Positions 42,066 through 50,188 of a stretch of 64,000 nucleotides of DNA are shown piece by piece. Source of the DNA: Rhodopseudomonas palustris (lineage in GTDB: Bacteria; Pseudomonadota; Alphaproteobacteria; Rhizobiales; Xanthobacteraceae); contig NZ_QYYD01000004.1 of NCBI RefSeq assembly GCF_003591005.1, positions 124,001-188,000 on the forward strand, given 5' to 3'. Positions within the stretch are counted from its first letter, which is position 1; each line of letters begins with the position of its first letter. The notes beneath the pieces were generated by a model. It had not been told where the DNA came from. It made no database searches and was given only the letters and a program-made list of their open reading frames with translations. The position numbers and the translations under genes were made by a program.

Positions 42066-42170
42066 GTCATTCCGGGGCACGCGCAACGCGCGCGAACCCG
42101 GACTCCAGAAGTTGTTATGCGCGGTTGAGATTCCGGGTTCGCTCCGCTGCGCTACGCGCCCTGGAATGAC
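42066..42170. repeat. Palindromic intergenic repeat, 'cattccggg' type, copy 1
   Basis: About 105 bases, from GTCATTCCGGGGC to the inverted GGAATGAC. Inside, CGCGCGAACCCGGA pairs roughly with TTCCGGGTTCGC. About 90% identical by eye to the copy 92 bases further on. Together they fill most of the 412-base gap before marR. Confidence 0.88.
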
Positions 42171-42261
42171 CCGGGGAGGGGCTAGGCGCAGGCCGATAGG
42201 CGGAACCGATAAGCGCGGTGCCATCCGCCATCGCCGTTCAATCTTTACACAGCCTCTCGTT

Positions 42262-42368
42262 CGTCATTCCGGGGCGCGCGCAACGCGCGCGAACCCGGAA
42301 TATCGAAGTTGTTTTGCGCGGTTGAGATTCCGGCTTCGCTCCGCTGCACTACGCGCCCCGGAGTGACT
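42262..42368. repeat. Palindromic intergenic repeat, 'cattccggg' type, copy 2
   Basis: Direct repeat of 42066-42170 in the same orientation. It lies at the left border of the catabolic island. Confidence 0.88.
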
Positions 42369-42467
42369 CGGGGAGAGGCTGAGCCATTCTTGTCAGGCGC
42401 CATGCCCCTTGGATTTTTCGCGATTCTCGGCAAATCAGGATGGTTGAGAGTCTCAAGGAGCGATCGC

Positions 42468-42944
42468 GTGGCGAAGAAAGTGAAACAGAAGGCCAAAAAC
42501 CTGTTTCGGCGGCCGGGCTTTCTGGTGCGTCGGCTGCACCAGATCTACGTCGCGATCTATCTCAAGGAGTGCGAGCGCTTCGGGACAACGCCGGTGCAGA
42601 CCAGCATCATGCAGGTGCTGCTCGACAAGCCTGGGCTCGATCAGGTGGCGCTTGCTGCCGAAATCGGCATGGATCGAACGACCACCTCAAACGTGCTGAC
42701 CCGTCTCGAGAAGCGGGGGATCATCCGGCGCGAAGAAGCTGAAAAGGATCGACGTGTCAGGCTGGCTTTTCTCACCGAGGAAGGCAGCGCAATGCTCTCC
42801 GATATGCAGGGGGCTTTAGACAAAGCTCACAGCCGTCTGATCGCCCCGCTGCCGGAGAGCGAGCGAGAGACCTTCATCGAGCACCTTGCCCTGCTGGTTG
42901 AATCCAACAACGACGCAGGGCGCACCGTGCTGCGCAATCTATGA
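42468..42944 (+). CDS. MarR-family regulator of the UbiD island
   Basis: 158 residues with the MarR winged helix (QVALAAEIGMDRTTTSNVLTRLEKRG, in pieces) and the wing RREEAEKDRRVRLAFLTEEG. Proteins of this family often bind aromatic acids or their CoA esters and repress the matching catabolic genes. The start is taken as GTG 42468, because AAGGAG lies exactly 7 bases before it; the ATG at 42402 has no such site. Two near-identical palindromes follow the gene, before ubiD, and are its likely operators. Confidence 0.85.
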   Translation: MAKKVKQKAKNLFRRPGFLVRRLHQIYVAIYLKECERFGTTPVQTSIMQVLLDKPGLDQVALAAEIGMDRTTTSNVLTRLEKRGIIRREEAEKDRRVRLAFLTEEGSAMLSDMQGALDKAHSRLIAPLPESERETFIEHLALLVESNNDAGRTVLRNL

Positions 42945-42984
42945 GCGCCTGCTGGTGAATGTTTGACGTTGTACGTCCGAAATC

Positions 42985-43000
42985 CATCAGCATACTGATG
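42985..43000. promoter_or_regulatory. Palindromic operator 1 (MarR-type)
   Basis: CATCAGCATACTGATG: 6-base arms CATCAG/CTGATG. Its core differs from operator 2 by one base (C for T). Centre at 42992.5, 69 bases from operator 2. Confidence 0.7.
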
Positions 43001-43035
43001 AGAGAGTGGCTCGGAGAGCTTGAGACTGCCCGCGG

Positions 43036-43067
43036 TTCACGCCGCGGACAGATCGTCAGTATACTGA
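43036..43067 (+). promoter_or_regulatory. Promoter of ubiD operon with operator 2 over the -10 box
   Basis: TTCACG (43036-43041), 18-base spacer, TATACT (43060-43065). The perfect palindrome TCAGTATACTGA (43056-43067) covers the -10 box, so a bound repressor would block RNA polymerase. The ribosome site GGAGG follows at 43074-43078. Confidence 0.65.
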
Positions 43068-43085: not shown

Positions 43086-44483
43086 TTGGACGAAACGACG
43101 TCAGTTCAAAGCTTGCGCGGCTTTCTCGACATGGTCCGCACGCGCTTCCCTGAAGAGTATCTGCAGATCCGCGATCGCGTGAATCCCCGCCTCGTGTCCA
43201 CCGCCATGGTCCTCGAACTCGATCGCGCGGGTCGTAGTCCCGTCGTGATGTTCGACAAGCTCGGCGATTCAGGCATGGCCTGCGTCACTAACATCGCCGC
43301 CAACCGCAAGCTGCTTGGCGCCTGCCTTGGCGTGGGAGCTTGCGAGTTGCCCACGGTGTTTCGCGAGCGCAGCCAGCGGCCGATCCCATGCGAGCTCGTC
43401 CAACGCGGCGAATGGGACGATGTCGTGATCGAGGGGGATGAGGTCGATCTCACCAAGCTGCCGATCCCGCATCAGTTCACCGTCGACGCCGCGCCTTACA
43501 TCACCGCCGGCCAGGTCACGGCGCGCGACCCGGTCACCGGTATCGACACCACCGGCTTCCATCGCCTGATGCTCGCCGGCAGGAACCGGCTGGGGATCTC
43601 GCTGCATTCGCGTCGCCGGATGTACGAGTATCACCGCCGCGCCGAACAGCGCGGCCACTCGCTTCCCGCCGCGATCACCATCGGCGTACATCCGCTGCAC
43701 TACATGGGTTCGATGACCTACGCGTACGGCGCCGACGTCCGCAAATACGAGATTATCGGGGCGCTGTTCGGACAGCCGTATCGGCTCGCCAGATGCGGCG
43801 TCGGCGATCTCGAGGCGCCGGCCGGCGCCGAGATGGTGATCGAGGGAGAGATCCTCGCTGGCGTCCACGAACCGGAGGGGCCGTTCGGTGAGTTCACAGG
43901 CTACGCCTCCTATCGCAGCACCCAGAATGTGTTCGTGGCTCATCGCATCCGGATGCGTCGTGACGCCTTCTTCCACAGCATCACGGCGGGGATGTCGAAG
44001 GATCACATCCTGATCTCCTCCGTGACGCGCGAGGGCGAAATTCTCAACGCGCTGCGCCGAAACCTGCCGAACGTCACAGCGGTGCATGTCCCGCACTCGA
44101 CCTGCGGCGCGTTCCTGGCCGTAGTGGCGATGAAGAAGACCGCGGCCGGCGAGCCCCAGATGGCCGTCATGGCGACGTTGGGGACCGAACTCTACACCAA
44201 ATACGTGATCGTCGTGGACGACGACGTCGACATTTTCGATCTCAACGATGTGTTCTGGGCGATCGCGACCCGGGTTCAGGCGGAGAAGGACATCTTCTTC
44301 ATCCCTGGCGCGAAGGGCGCGGTCATCGATCCGAGTTCGGATCCGCAGAGCTTCACCGTCACCAAGATGGGCATCGACGCGACCCGCCCCAGCGGCCGGG
44401 AATTTGCAGAGCGATTGGTCGTGCCCGACGAGGCGCGCGACCGCGCACGGGCCATCCTCAGCGCTGCGGGCATTACCTTGTAA
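43086..44483 (+). CDS. UbiD-family prenyl-FMN-dependent decarboxylase
   Basis: 465 residues from TTG 43086; GGAGG ends 7 bases before it, while the TTG at 43080 is too close. Family signatures: ITAGQVTARDP (Arg147), the EGPFGEFTGY motif with Glu264 and Glu269 (the E-x4-E catalytic pair), and DDDVDIFDLNDVFWAIATR near the end. Such enzymes reversibly decarboxylate aromatic, heteroaromatic or unsaturated acids with prenylated FMN. Thr155 stands where the family usually has the metal-binding Asn (TGxxN). The neighbours suggest catabolism rather than ubiquinone synthesis. Substrate unknown. Confidence 0.92.
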   Translation: MDETTSVQSLRGFLDMVRTRFPEEYLQIRDRVNPRLVSTAMVLELDRAGRSPVVMFDKLGDSGMACVTNIAANRKLLGACLGVGACELPTVFRERSQRPIPCELVQRGEWDDVVIEGDEVDLTKLPIPHQFTVDAAPYITAGQVTARDPVTGIDTTGFHRLMLAGRNRLGISLHSRRRMYEYHRRAEQRGHSLPAAITIGVHPLHYMGSMTYAYGADVRKYEIIGALFGQPYRLARCGVGDLEAPAGAEMVIEGEILAGVHEPEGPFGEFTGYASYRSTQNVFVAHRIRMRRDAFFHSITAGMSKDHILISSVTREGEILNALRRNLPNVTAVHVPHSTCGAFLAVVAMKKTAAGEPQMAVMATLGTELYTKYVIVVDDDVDIFDLNDVFWAIATRVQAEKDIFFIPGAKGAVIDPSSDPQSFTVTKMGIDATRPSGREFAERLVVPDEARDRARAILSAAGITL

Positions 44484-44537: not shown

Positions 44538-45533
44538 ATGAATCGATTGACCGCTTTCTGCTTCAGCGTGGCGCTTTCAACCTTGACCGGCCTGTCAGCA
44601 GCCTCGGCACAGCAGCCCGTCAAGCTCCGCTTCGCCACGGTGGGCGTCGGCTCGGCCTGGTACAACTATGGCGCGGGCTTCGCCGATCTCGTGACCAAGC
44701 AGCTTCCCAAAGGGTCGAGCATCGATGTCCTCCCGATTGCTGGCGGCGTCGGCAACATCAAGCTGATCCAGAGCGGCGAGGCCGAACTCGGGATCAGCTT
44801 CGCCGTGACGTCGGCCGAGGGCTGCGGCGGTTTCGGCGCGTTCTCGCAAAAGCAGGACAAGGTGATGGGCCTGATCGGCGGGCTCGATACTTATTACTTC
44901 GGCACCTTTGTCACCAAAGCGTCCGGGGTCACGTCCTGGAACGACATCGTCGCCGGCAAGAATAAGTTTCATCTGCTGACCACCCAGGCCGGCGGCACCG
45001 GCGAGCAGGGCGTGCGTCAGGTTCTCCAGCTGCTGGGATCGAGCAAGGAGAGCGTCGCACAGAAAGGCGGGATGATCGAACCGTCGACCCGTTCGGGAAC
45101 GGCCGAGATCATCAAGGACGGCAATGCCGGCGGCTGGGCGCATGTGGTGACGAAGGGCCATCCCGCGGCCACGCAGATCACCACCGTCAACGACATGATC
45201 ATGCTGCCGCTGCCCGACGACGTGATCAAGGGAATGACGGAAAAGTTCGGCTGGGCTGAAGTCACCGTTCCGGCCAACACTTTCAAAGGCCAGACTGAGC
45301 CGGTGAAGACGGTTCGCGCCGCGTCCAACATCCTGATCGCGTCGAGCGTCTCCGACGACGCGGCCTACACGATCGCCAAGACGCTGGTCGAGAGCGCCGC
45401 GGCGATGCCGCGGATCCACGCAGCGTTGGCCGATTTCGATCCCAAGCTCGCCGCGGATCCCGCCCTCAACGGCAACTGTCCGATCCATCCGGGCGCGGCG
45501 AAATACTATCGTGAAGCCGGGCTGATGAAGTAA
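44538..45533 (+). CDS. TAXI-family TRAP transporter solute-binding protein
   Basis: 331 residues: signal peptide cleaved after about residue 24 (LSAASAQQ) and a periplasmic binding fold of the TAXI type (LRFATVGVGSAWYNYGAGFADLV, IAGGVGNIKLIQSGEAELG). It captures the substrate for the TRAP permease encoded next. AAGGAGA lies 8 bases before the ATG. Known TAXI substrates are dicarboxylates and amino acids such as glutamate; the cargo here is probably the acid handled by the UbiD enzyme (inference). Confidence 0.92.
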   Translation: MNRLTAFCFSVALSTLTGLSAASAQQPVKLRFATVGVGSAWYNYGAGFADLVTKQLPKGSSIDVLPIAGGVGNIKLIQSGEAELGISFAVTSAEGCGGFGAFSQKQDKVMGLIGGLDTYYFGTFVTKASGVTSWNDIVAGKNKFHLLTTQAGGTGEQGVRQVLQLLGSSKESVAQKGGMIEPSTRSGTAEIIKDGNAGGWAHVVTKGHPAATQITTVNDMIMLPLPDDVIKGMTEKFGWAEVTVPANTFKGQTEPVKTVRAASNILIASSVSDDAAYTIAKTLVESAAAMPRIHAALADFDPKLAADPALNGNCPIHPGAAKYYREAGLMK

Positions 45534-49000: not shown

Positions 49001-49007
49001 GGCGTTG

Positions 49008-49619
49008 ATGGCAACTGCATCAATGCCCATTGTCGTCGGTATCAGCGGCGCGTCGGGCATCGTTCTCGGGATCCGGTTACTTGACGTTCTCGCAACGCTA
49101 GGGATCGAGAGCCATCTGGTGATGACGCGCTCGGCGCAGGTGACGCTCGCTCATGAAACTGATCTGAAGGTGTCCGACGTTCGTGCGAGGGCCAGCGTTG
49201 TGCATCAGGTCGACGACATCGGTGCGTCAATCTCGAGCGGCTCGTTCCCCACGGCGGGAATGATCATCGCCCCGTGTTCAATCCGCTCGATGTCGGAGAT
49301 CGCCAGCGGCGTGACGTCCTCGCTGCTGACGCGGGCGGCGGACGTGGTGCTGAAGGAGCGGCGTCGTCTGGTCCTTCTGGTCCGGGAAACGCCGTTGCAC
49401 CTCGGTCACCTGCGCACCATGACTGCGCTGACCGAGATGGGGGCTATCGTGATGCCGCCGGTGCCGGCGTTCTACATCAGGCCGCAGAGCATCGACGAGA
49501 TCGTCGACCATACGCTGAGCCGGACACTCGATCTGTTTGGAATCGATGCCGGTCTCTCCCGGCGCTGGAGCGGAGCGAAGATGGACGTCGTCGCCAAACC
49601 AGCCGACTCCGCCGAATGA
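49008..49619 (+). CDS. ubiX: Flavin prenyltransferase UbiX
   Basis: 203 residues. VVGISGASGIVLGIRLLDVL is the FMN-binding start; PCSIRSMSEIASGVTSSLLTRAADVVLKERRRLVLLVRETPLH in outline is the signature second half. UbiX attaches a dimethylallyl group to FMN, making the cofactor of UbiD. Its presence in the operon supports a dedicated supply. ATG 49008 has TGAGG 6 bases upstream. Its stop overlaps the next start (ATGA). Confidence 0.94.
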   Translation: MATASMPIVVGISGASGIVLGIRLLDVLATLGIESHLVMTRSAQVTLAHETDLKVSDVRARASVVHQVDDIGASISSGSFPTAGMIIAPCSIRSMSEIASGVTSSLLTRAADVVLKERRRLVLLVRETPLHLGHLRTMTALTEMGAIVMPPVPAFYIRPQSIDEIVDHTLSRTLDLFGIDAGLSRRWSGAKMDVVAKPADSAE

Positions 49620-50188
49620 GCTCGGGGGCATTGCCGGTGACCGAGCCGACGGACCTCGACGGGCCGCATTGGACCTTCGCGCTCGACATCTACGGCCGCG
49701 CCGGGGTGCAGCCGGCCTGTCTGCGGCTGCAGGACGAGTTTGGTGTCGACGTCAATGTGCTGCTGATCTGCCTGTATGGCGGATCGAAACTTGGCATCGG
49801 CATCGGTGAGCGTGAGGTGGCATTGCTCGACGAGACCGTCGCCGCGTGGCGCAGCGAGATCGTGCAGCCGATGCGGGCCATCCGGCGGCAGTTGAAAACC
49901 GTGTCGTCGCCGTGCCTTCCGGGAGATCTCCGCGACACGGTCAAGCACGCGGAGCTTCGTGCCGAACAGGTCGAACTGGCAATGCTGGCAGAGTCGATCA
50001 GAAAATTGCCTACGGCTTCGGCTCCTGACCTACGAGCAGCCTTGCACGCCGTGACGGCCTACTACGCCGCCCAACTGTCCCAGCCTGGCGACCACGCAAC
50101 CGCTGAGGCGGCAATCGAGACGCTTCTCGGCGCGTGCTCAACGATGTCGTCGCCGACCGATGCCGTCGACTACCCGCTGCCCGAATAG
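49616..50188 (+). CDS. TIGR02444-type protein of unknown function
   Basis: 190 residues. HWTFALDIYGRAGVQPACLRLQDEFGVDVNVLLICLYGG, in outline, is the start of the TIGR02444 (DUF2390) family, helical and cytoplasmic, with no known activity. The ATG overlaps the ubiX stop, so it is translated with the decarboxylase operon. Its last 19 bases overlap the end of fliP on the other strand. Its recruitment to this operon is unusual, or it is an older neighbour of fliP. Confidence 0.8.
   Translation: MSSGALPVTEPTDLDGPHWTFALDIYGRAGVQPACLRLQDEFGVDVNVLLICLYGGSKLGIGIGEREVALLDETVAAWRSEIVQPMRAIRRQLKTVSSPCLPGDLRDTVKHAELRAEQVELAMLAESIRKLPTASAPDLRAALHAVTAYYAAQLSQPGDHATAEAAIETLLGACSTMSSPTDAVDYPLPE

What the first reader, a model, noticed from the sequence alone, without database searches (positions are those of the whole stretch)
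42985..43067. Twin palindromic operators, one over the -10 box of the ubiD promoter
CATCAGCATACTGATG (42985) and TCAGTATACTGA (43056) share the core TCAG(C/T)ATACTGA, with centres 69 bases apart, both between marR and ubiD. The second covers TATACT of a promoter with TTCACG at 18 bases. This fits repression by the MarR protein with possible looping.
Basis: partly seen in the sequence, partly recalled or inferred. Interest (0 to 1): 0.7.

Follow-up and report, generated by a model that had tools for sequence, protein, structure and literature searches.

The report
Paired MarR operators before ubiD
Two short mirror-symmetric DNA sites in front of a ubiD catabolic operon are almost certainly landing sites for the MarR repressor encoded next door, because the same palindrome accompanies this regulator in related bacteria even when the controlled genes differ; it is a solid but ordinary kind of gene switch.

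Summary
CATCAGCATACTGATG (42985-43000) and TCAGTATACTGA (43056-43067) are present, centres 69 bp apart, and are the only two exact TCAGYATACTGA sites in the 5.62 Mb genome. Among all 4096 12-bp palindromes, TCAGTATACTGA ranks first beside 12 marR orthologues: 9/12 within 1 mismatch, 12/12 within 2 (shuffled maximum 3 and 8). TCAG and CTGA are invariant around a variable N4. The palindrome follows the MarR even where ubiD is absent. A 42%-identical paralogue in the same genome has its own unique palindrome, CGAAGCATGCTTCG. Repression by the neighbouring MarR is therefore well supported, though no binding was measured. (2) Looping is not supported: spacing is 59-76 bp without constant helical phase, and some orthologues have one site. 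A new instance of a known kind of control; operator, ligand and pathway remain untested experimentally.

The parts
42468..42944 (+). marR: MarR-family winged-helix regulator, 158 aa, GTG start; predicted binder of both operators
   Evidence: PF01047 E=4.7e-13; nearest solved relatives PcaV and HosA
42969..42996 (+). Inferred main promoter P1: TTGTAC (42969-42974), 16-bp spacer, CATACT (42991-42996)
   Evidence: Read directly; TTG at 16-17 bp from the -10 kept in window, L063, L064, L065, L066, L067, L071; not in L069
42985..43000 (.). Operator site 1, CATCAGCATACTGATG (core TCAGCATACTGA 42987-42998), overlapping the -10 of P1
   Evidence: conserved 43-47 bp after the marR stop in 8 tandem marR-ubiD loci
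43036..43065 (+).
   Evidence: Only consensus hit; -35 not kept in L063 or L064
43055..43068 (.). Operator site 2, GTCAGTATACTGAT, about 53 nt downstream of the start inferred for P1 and 18 bp before the ubiD start codon
   Evidence: kept in L063 and L064, decayed but recognisable in L065 and L066, not seen in L067, L069, L071
43074..43078 (+). GGAGG ribosome-binding site of ubiD
   Evidence: Read directly
43086..44483 (+). ubiD: prFMN-dependent decarboxylase family (TTG start inferred; 43080 is the longer alternative)
   Evidence: PF01977/PF20696, TIGR00148; closest solved chain 6h6v
44538..45533 (+). TAXI-type TRAP solute-binding protein, same operon
   Evidence: TIGR02122
45579..47498 (+). 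Fused TRAP transporter permease, same operon
   Evidence: TIGR02123
47495..49000 (+). Amidohydrolase of the PRK06151 chlorohydrolase subfamily, same operon
   Evidence: NF004801 E=2.7e-158
49005..49619 (+). ubiX: flavin prenyltransferase that makes the UbiD cofactor, same operon
   Evidence: TIGR00421/NF004685

Best explanation
The two palindromes are operators of the MarR protein encoded immediately upstream. A MarR dimer binds each TCAG-N4-CTGA site. At site 1 it covers the -10 box of the conserved ubiD-operon promoter (TTGTAC-16-CATACT) and blocks RNA polymerase. At site 2, in the ubiD leader just before the ribosome-binding site, a second dimer either blocks a second promoter (TTCACG-18-TATACT) or acts as a roadblock, including to read-through from marR. 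When the substrate of the pathway (inferred: an aromatic or heteroaromatic acid imported by the TRAP transporter, or its product) binds MarR, the dimer lets go and the operon ubiD-TAXI-TRAP-amidohydrolase-ubiX is expressed. Shown here: sites, uniqueness, conservation, and linkage to this MarR rather than to ubiD. Inferred: binding, repression, promoter use, ligand.
For: Uniqueness in the genome and absence of the exact motif from the 14 congeneric genomes without this MarR orthologue. Unbiased palindrome ranking beside 12 marR orthologues picked by protein, not by DNA motif. Arms TCAG/CTGA invariant 12/12 with variable centre and outer TC/GA symmetry, i.e. ATCRTCAG-N4-CTGAYGAT. Motif retained next to MarR when ubiD is not beside it (L070, L072, L073 with the amidohydrolase; L027 before an HpaB-like ORF; L046/L047/L099), so it tracks the regulator. 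In the same genome the 42%-identical paralogue (C5:15414) has one exact CGAAGCATGCTTCG 170 bp upstream, unique in the genome; 30 loci carry the TCAG type, 11 the GAAG type, only 1 both. -35 TTG and site 1 kept together. No terminator-like structure in the gap.
Against: No binding or expression data. Two 58%-identical MarR loci (L044, L045) lack a full site and show only a half-site before the amidohydrolase. 79 of 121 distinct MarR loci, mostly the more distant ones, lack either motif within 400 bp of marR. No matching palindrome lies upstream of marR itself, so there is no sign of autoregulation. The -10 overlap is partly built in, because YATRCT resembles a -10.
Confidence: 0.87

Rival explanations
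1. The palindromes are operators of the MarR, and the two bound dimers interact to loop out or bridge the 69 bp.
For: Two sites are kept in window, L063, L064, L065 and L066; other members of the MarR group also have pairs.
Against: Spacings of 69, 67, 76, 59 and 59 bp are not in constant phase; 69 bp is about 6.6 turns, so the sites lie on roughly opposite faces; orthologues L067, L069 and L071 show one site; in Cupriavidus loci pairs are only 21-23 bp apart. MarR proteins are dimers with one DNA-binding surface (general knowledge).
Confidence: 0.07
2. A different regulator, not this MarR, binds the palindromes.
For: No binding data exist; other regulators can recognise similar palindromes.
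Against: The motif stays next to this MarR lineage while the neighbouring operon changes, and a paralogous MarR has its own variant palindrome with the same AGYATRCT core in the same genome.
Confidence: 0.07
3. The sequences act in RNA (terminator or leader hairpin) or are only -10 boxes, not operators.
For: CATCAG-CATA-CTGATG could form a 6-bp hairpin; YATRCT resembles a -10.
Against: No T run and no terminator-like site; conservation is strongest in the TCAG and CTGA arms, largely outside the -10 hexamer, and is symmetric.
Confidence: 0.03

Closest known systems
PicR of Alcaligenes faecalis JQ135 (MarR repressor of the pic cluster; Xu et al. 2022, PMC9195942, cited in PMC10142695)
   Same: MarR repressor of a catabolic cluster; from memory its reported site is TCAG-N4-CTNN, which both window sites fit
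   Different: The paper is not held here, so the motif is unverified; different cluster (picolinic acid); orthology not tested
HosA (MarR repressor of the non-oxidative hydroxyarylic acid decarboxylase operon of E. coli)
   Same: MarR regulator beside UbiD/UbiX-type decarboxylase genes; second-best solved relative of this MarR
   Different: VdcB and VdcC models score below their cut-offs; no vdcD-like gene among the operon genes typed; TRAP transporter and amidohydrolase instead
PcaV (MarR regulator, PDB 4fht)
   Same: Best solved sequence match to this MarR (E=5.9e-20 with profile)
   Different: Different pathway and, as far as recalled, a different operator
BpsR of Bordetella (PDB 6pcp; PMC6837509)
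   Same: MarR fold with an aromatic-acid ligand (6-hydroxynicotinic acid) that releases DNA; aligns over positions 14-153
   Different: Different target genes; no operator sequence found in the passages read

Membership tests
MarR-family transcriptional regulator | Winged helix-turn-helix MarR domain above curated cut-off | tested here: met
   PF01047 49.2 bits against 24.6; PF12802 48.8 against 27
MarR-family transcriptional regulator | Adjacent 12-20 bp palindromic operator conserved in orthologues | tested here: met
   Ranking of 4096 palindromes and invariant arms
MarR-family transcriptional regulator | Binding of the palindrome and release by an aromatic ligand | not testable with these tools
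   Needs gel shift or footprinting with candidate acids
HosA / VdcBCD system | Genes scoring above the VdcB and VdcC cut-offs | tested here: not met
   VdcC 264.4 bits against 650; VdcB 233.5 against 290
PicR-type operator TCAG-N4-CTNN | Sequence fits TCAG-N4-CTNN | tested here: met
   TCAG-CATA-CTGA and TCAG-TATA-CTGA; the PicR motif itself is from memory, source not held
PicR orthologue | Orthology of the regulator or pic genes | not tested
   No PicR sequence was compared; neighbouring genes are ubiD, TRAP, amidohydrolase and ubiX
Looped two-operator repression | Conserved helical phase between sites | tested here: not met
   Spacings 69, 67, 76, 59, 59 bp

The most novel reading that the evidence does not exclude
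A large proteobacterial MarR subfamily (Alpha-, Beta- and Gammaproteobacteria) uses one operator code with the shared core AGYATRCT, in which a flanking pair (TC..GA or GA..TC) sets paralogue-specific, insulated recognition. The core doubles as the -10 box, so repressor and RNA polymerase compete for the same bases. Here it controls an uncharacterised decarboxylase-amidohydrolase pathway.
Probability: 0.4. Interest if true: 0.45.

Novelty: new member of a known kind. Interest (0 to 1): 0.33.

Why it matters
It gives a testable operator for an uncharacterised UbiD-UbiX-amidohydrolase-TRAP operon, and therefore a reporter with which to find its substrate. The two insulated palindromes of two MarR paralogues in one genome (TCAG and GAAG types) offer a small natural code for how recognition helices choose flanking bases: in the helices read in full, the TCAG-type proteins have Val at position 76 of the window protein (DRTTTSNVL) where the GAAG type has Ala (DRTTTTGAL). 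That is useful for predicting regulons and for orthogonal sensors.

Tried and rejected
Looping was tested by spacing across orthologues and rejected as unsupported. Further targets in the genome: the third perfect degenerate hit (C88:8695, ATCAGCATGCTGAC) lies inside a long ORF, and the C17 near-match sits beside a TetR/RutR-like gene, so neither was counted. A palindrome before marR (TTGAGAGTCTCAA, 42443-42455) is not exact in R. infernalis, so it was not treated as an operator. A general TTG enrichment at -35 over all 117 collected sites gave only a weak peak at 16-17 bp spacing; the promoter claim rests on the close tandem loci. Literature searches for the exact palindromes found nothing; PicR and HosA papers were not held. 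The ubiD-without-MarR control was thin: in 297 genomes of the order only five strong UbiD hits exist; the three at 75-100% identity have the site, and the two at about 40% have no match within one mismatch.

Full report
Observation. The window reads CATCAGCATACTGATG at 42985-43000 and TCAGTATACTGA at 43056-43067; both cores are found without mismatch and the centres are 69 bp apart. The whole genome of 5.62 Mb has no other exact TCAGYATACTGA. One further exact match to the looser RTCAGYATRCTGAY exists, inside a long ORF on contig 88. Across 16 genomes of the genus, exact RTCAGYATACTGAY occurs only in the two that carry this MarR. The promoter-like TTCACG-18-TATACT is there and is the only consensus hit in the region.

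Setting. marR (42468-42944) is followed by ubiD (43086-44483, TTG start behind GGAGG), a TAXI-type TRAP binding protein, a fused TRAP permease, a PRK06151-type amidohydrolase and ubiX, all on the plus strand. The nearest named relative is Rhodopseudomonas infernalis. The cluster is patchy: within the genus only the window genome and one other have the orthologous MarR, and only 5 of 297 genomes of the order have a strong UbiD hit.

Conservation test. MarR orthologues were collected by protein, not by DNA motif. For the window and 11 loci at 54% identity or more, all 4096 perfect 12-bp palindromes were ranked by how many loci carry them within 400 bp of marR. TCAGTATACTGA came first with 9 of 12 at up to one mismatch and 12 of 12 at up to two; the best of 20 shuffled controls reached 3 and 8. 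In the 12 best sites TCAG and CTGA are invariant, the central four bases vary, and an outer TC/GA symmetry appears, giving ATCRTCAG-N4-CTGAYGAT.

Which protein. The motif stays beside the MarR when ubiD is missing: next to the amidohydrolase in L070, L072 and L073, before an ORF that reads like HpaB in the more distant L027 (39% MarR identity), and beside L046, L047 and L099. In the window's own genome the 42%-identical paralogue (C5:15414) has CGAAGCATGCTTCG 170 bp upstream, an exact sequence found nowhere else in the genome. Of 121 distinct MarR loci, 30 have the TCAG type nearby, 11 the GAAG type, 1 both and 79 neither within 400 bp. The types share the core AGYATRCT and differ in the flanking pair. 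In the helices read in full, TCAG-type proteins have Val (as in DRTTTSNVL) where GAAG-type ones have Ala (DRTTTTGAL). This is the pattern expected if the MarR proteins themselves read the palindromes.

Promoters. Aligning close loci shows that the block from a TTG to site 1 is kept while the rest of the gap diverges. TTG lies 16 bp (17 in L065 and L066) before the CANNCT-type hexamer inside site 1 in the window, L063, L064, L065, L066, L067 and L071; L069 is an exception. I therefore infer that the main promoter is TTGTAC-16-CATACT (42969-42996) with site 1 over its -10. Because the operator centre YATRCT itself resembles a -10 hexamer, overlap with TATACT alone is weak evidence of a promoter. 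A family-wide TTG enrichment test gave only a weak peak.

Two sites. The pair is kept in window, L063, L064, L065 and L066, with site 1 always 43-44 bp after the marR stop, but the second is decayed in L065 and L066 and not recognisable in L067, L069 and L071. Spacings of 69, 67, 76, 59 and 59 bp do not keep a helical phase, and 69 bp is about 6.6 turns. Looping is therefore not supported. Site 2 more likely adds a second block, over P2 or as a roadblock in the leader.

Limits. No binding, expression or ligand data exist. L044 and L045 (58% identity) have only a half-site. The ligand is inferred from the operon and from solved relatives that bind aromatic acids, such as BpsR with 6-hydroxynicotinic acid (PMC6837509). 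The likeness to the PicR motif TCAG-N4-CTNN is from memory; the paper is not held.

Verdict. The finding is real and its main interpretation is probably right, with the promoter reassigned and looping dropped. It is a new instance of a known kind of control, raised somewhat by the paralogue-specific palindrome code and by giving a handle on an uncharacterised catabolic operon.

Noticed in passing
G000 contig C5:15231-15244 (L148): A MarR paralogue (42% identity) has its own unique palindrome CGAAGCATGCTTCG 170 bp upstream; same core AGYATRCT, swapped flanks. Eleven relatives' loci show the same GAAG type.
   Followed up: partly
window 42066-42183 and 42263-42380: Two direct copies (90% identical, 118 nt) of a GC-rich repeat between the upstream 1260-aa ORF and marR.
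   Followed up: no
window 42443-42455: TTGAGAGTCTCAA, a 6-1-6 palindrome just upstream of marR; R. infernalis has TTGAGATTCTCGA at the same place.
   Followed up: partly
window 43030-43047: CCGCGGTTCACGCCGCGG: two self-complementary CCGCGG hexamers bracket the proposed TTCACG -35 box; R. infernalis has a different sequence there.
   Followed up: no
L074, L077, L079, L081, L083, L084, L087: Cupriavidus and related loci carry tandem TCAG-N4-CTGA sites 21-23 bp apart, about 3.5 kb from marR.
   Followed up: partly
L068 (Hansschlegelia beijingensis), about 340 bp upstream of marR: The operator is embedded in a 34-bp palindrome AAACCATATCGTCAGCATACTGACGATATGGTTT, perfect except for one central pair.
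   Followed up: no
window 49625-50188: A TIGR02444 family gene directly follows ubiX; function unknown.
   Followed up: no
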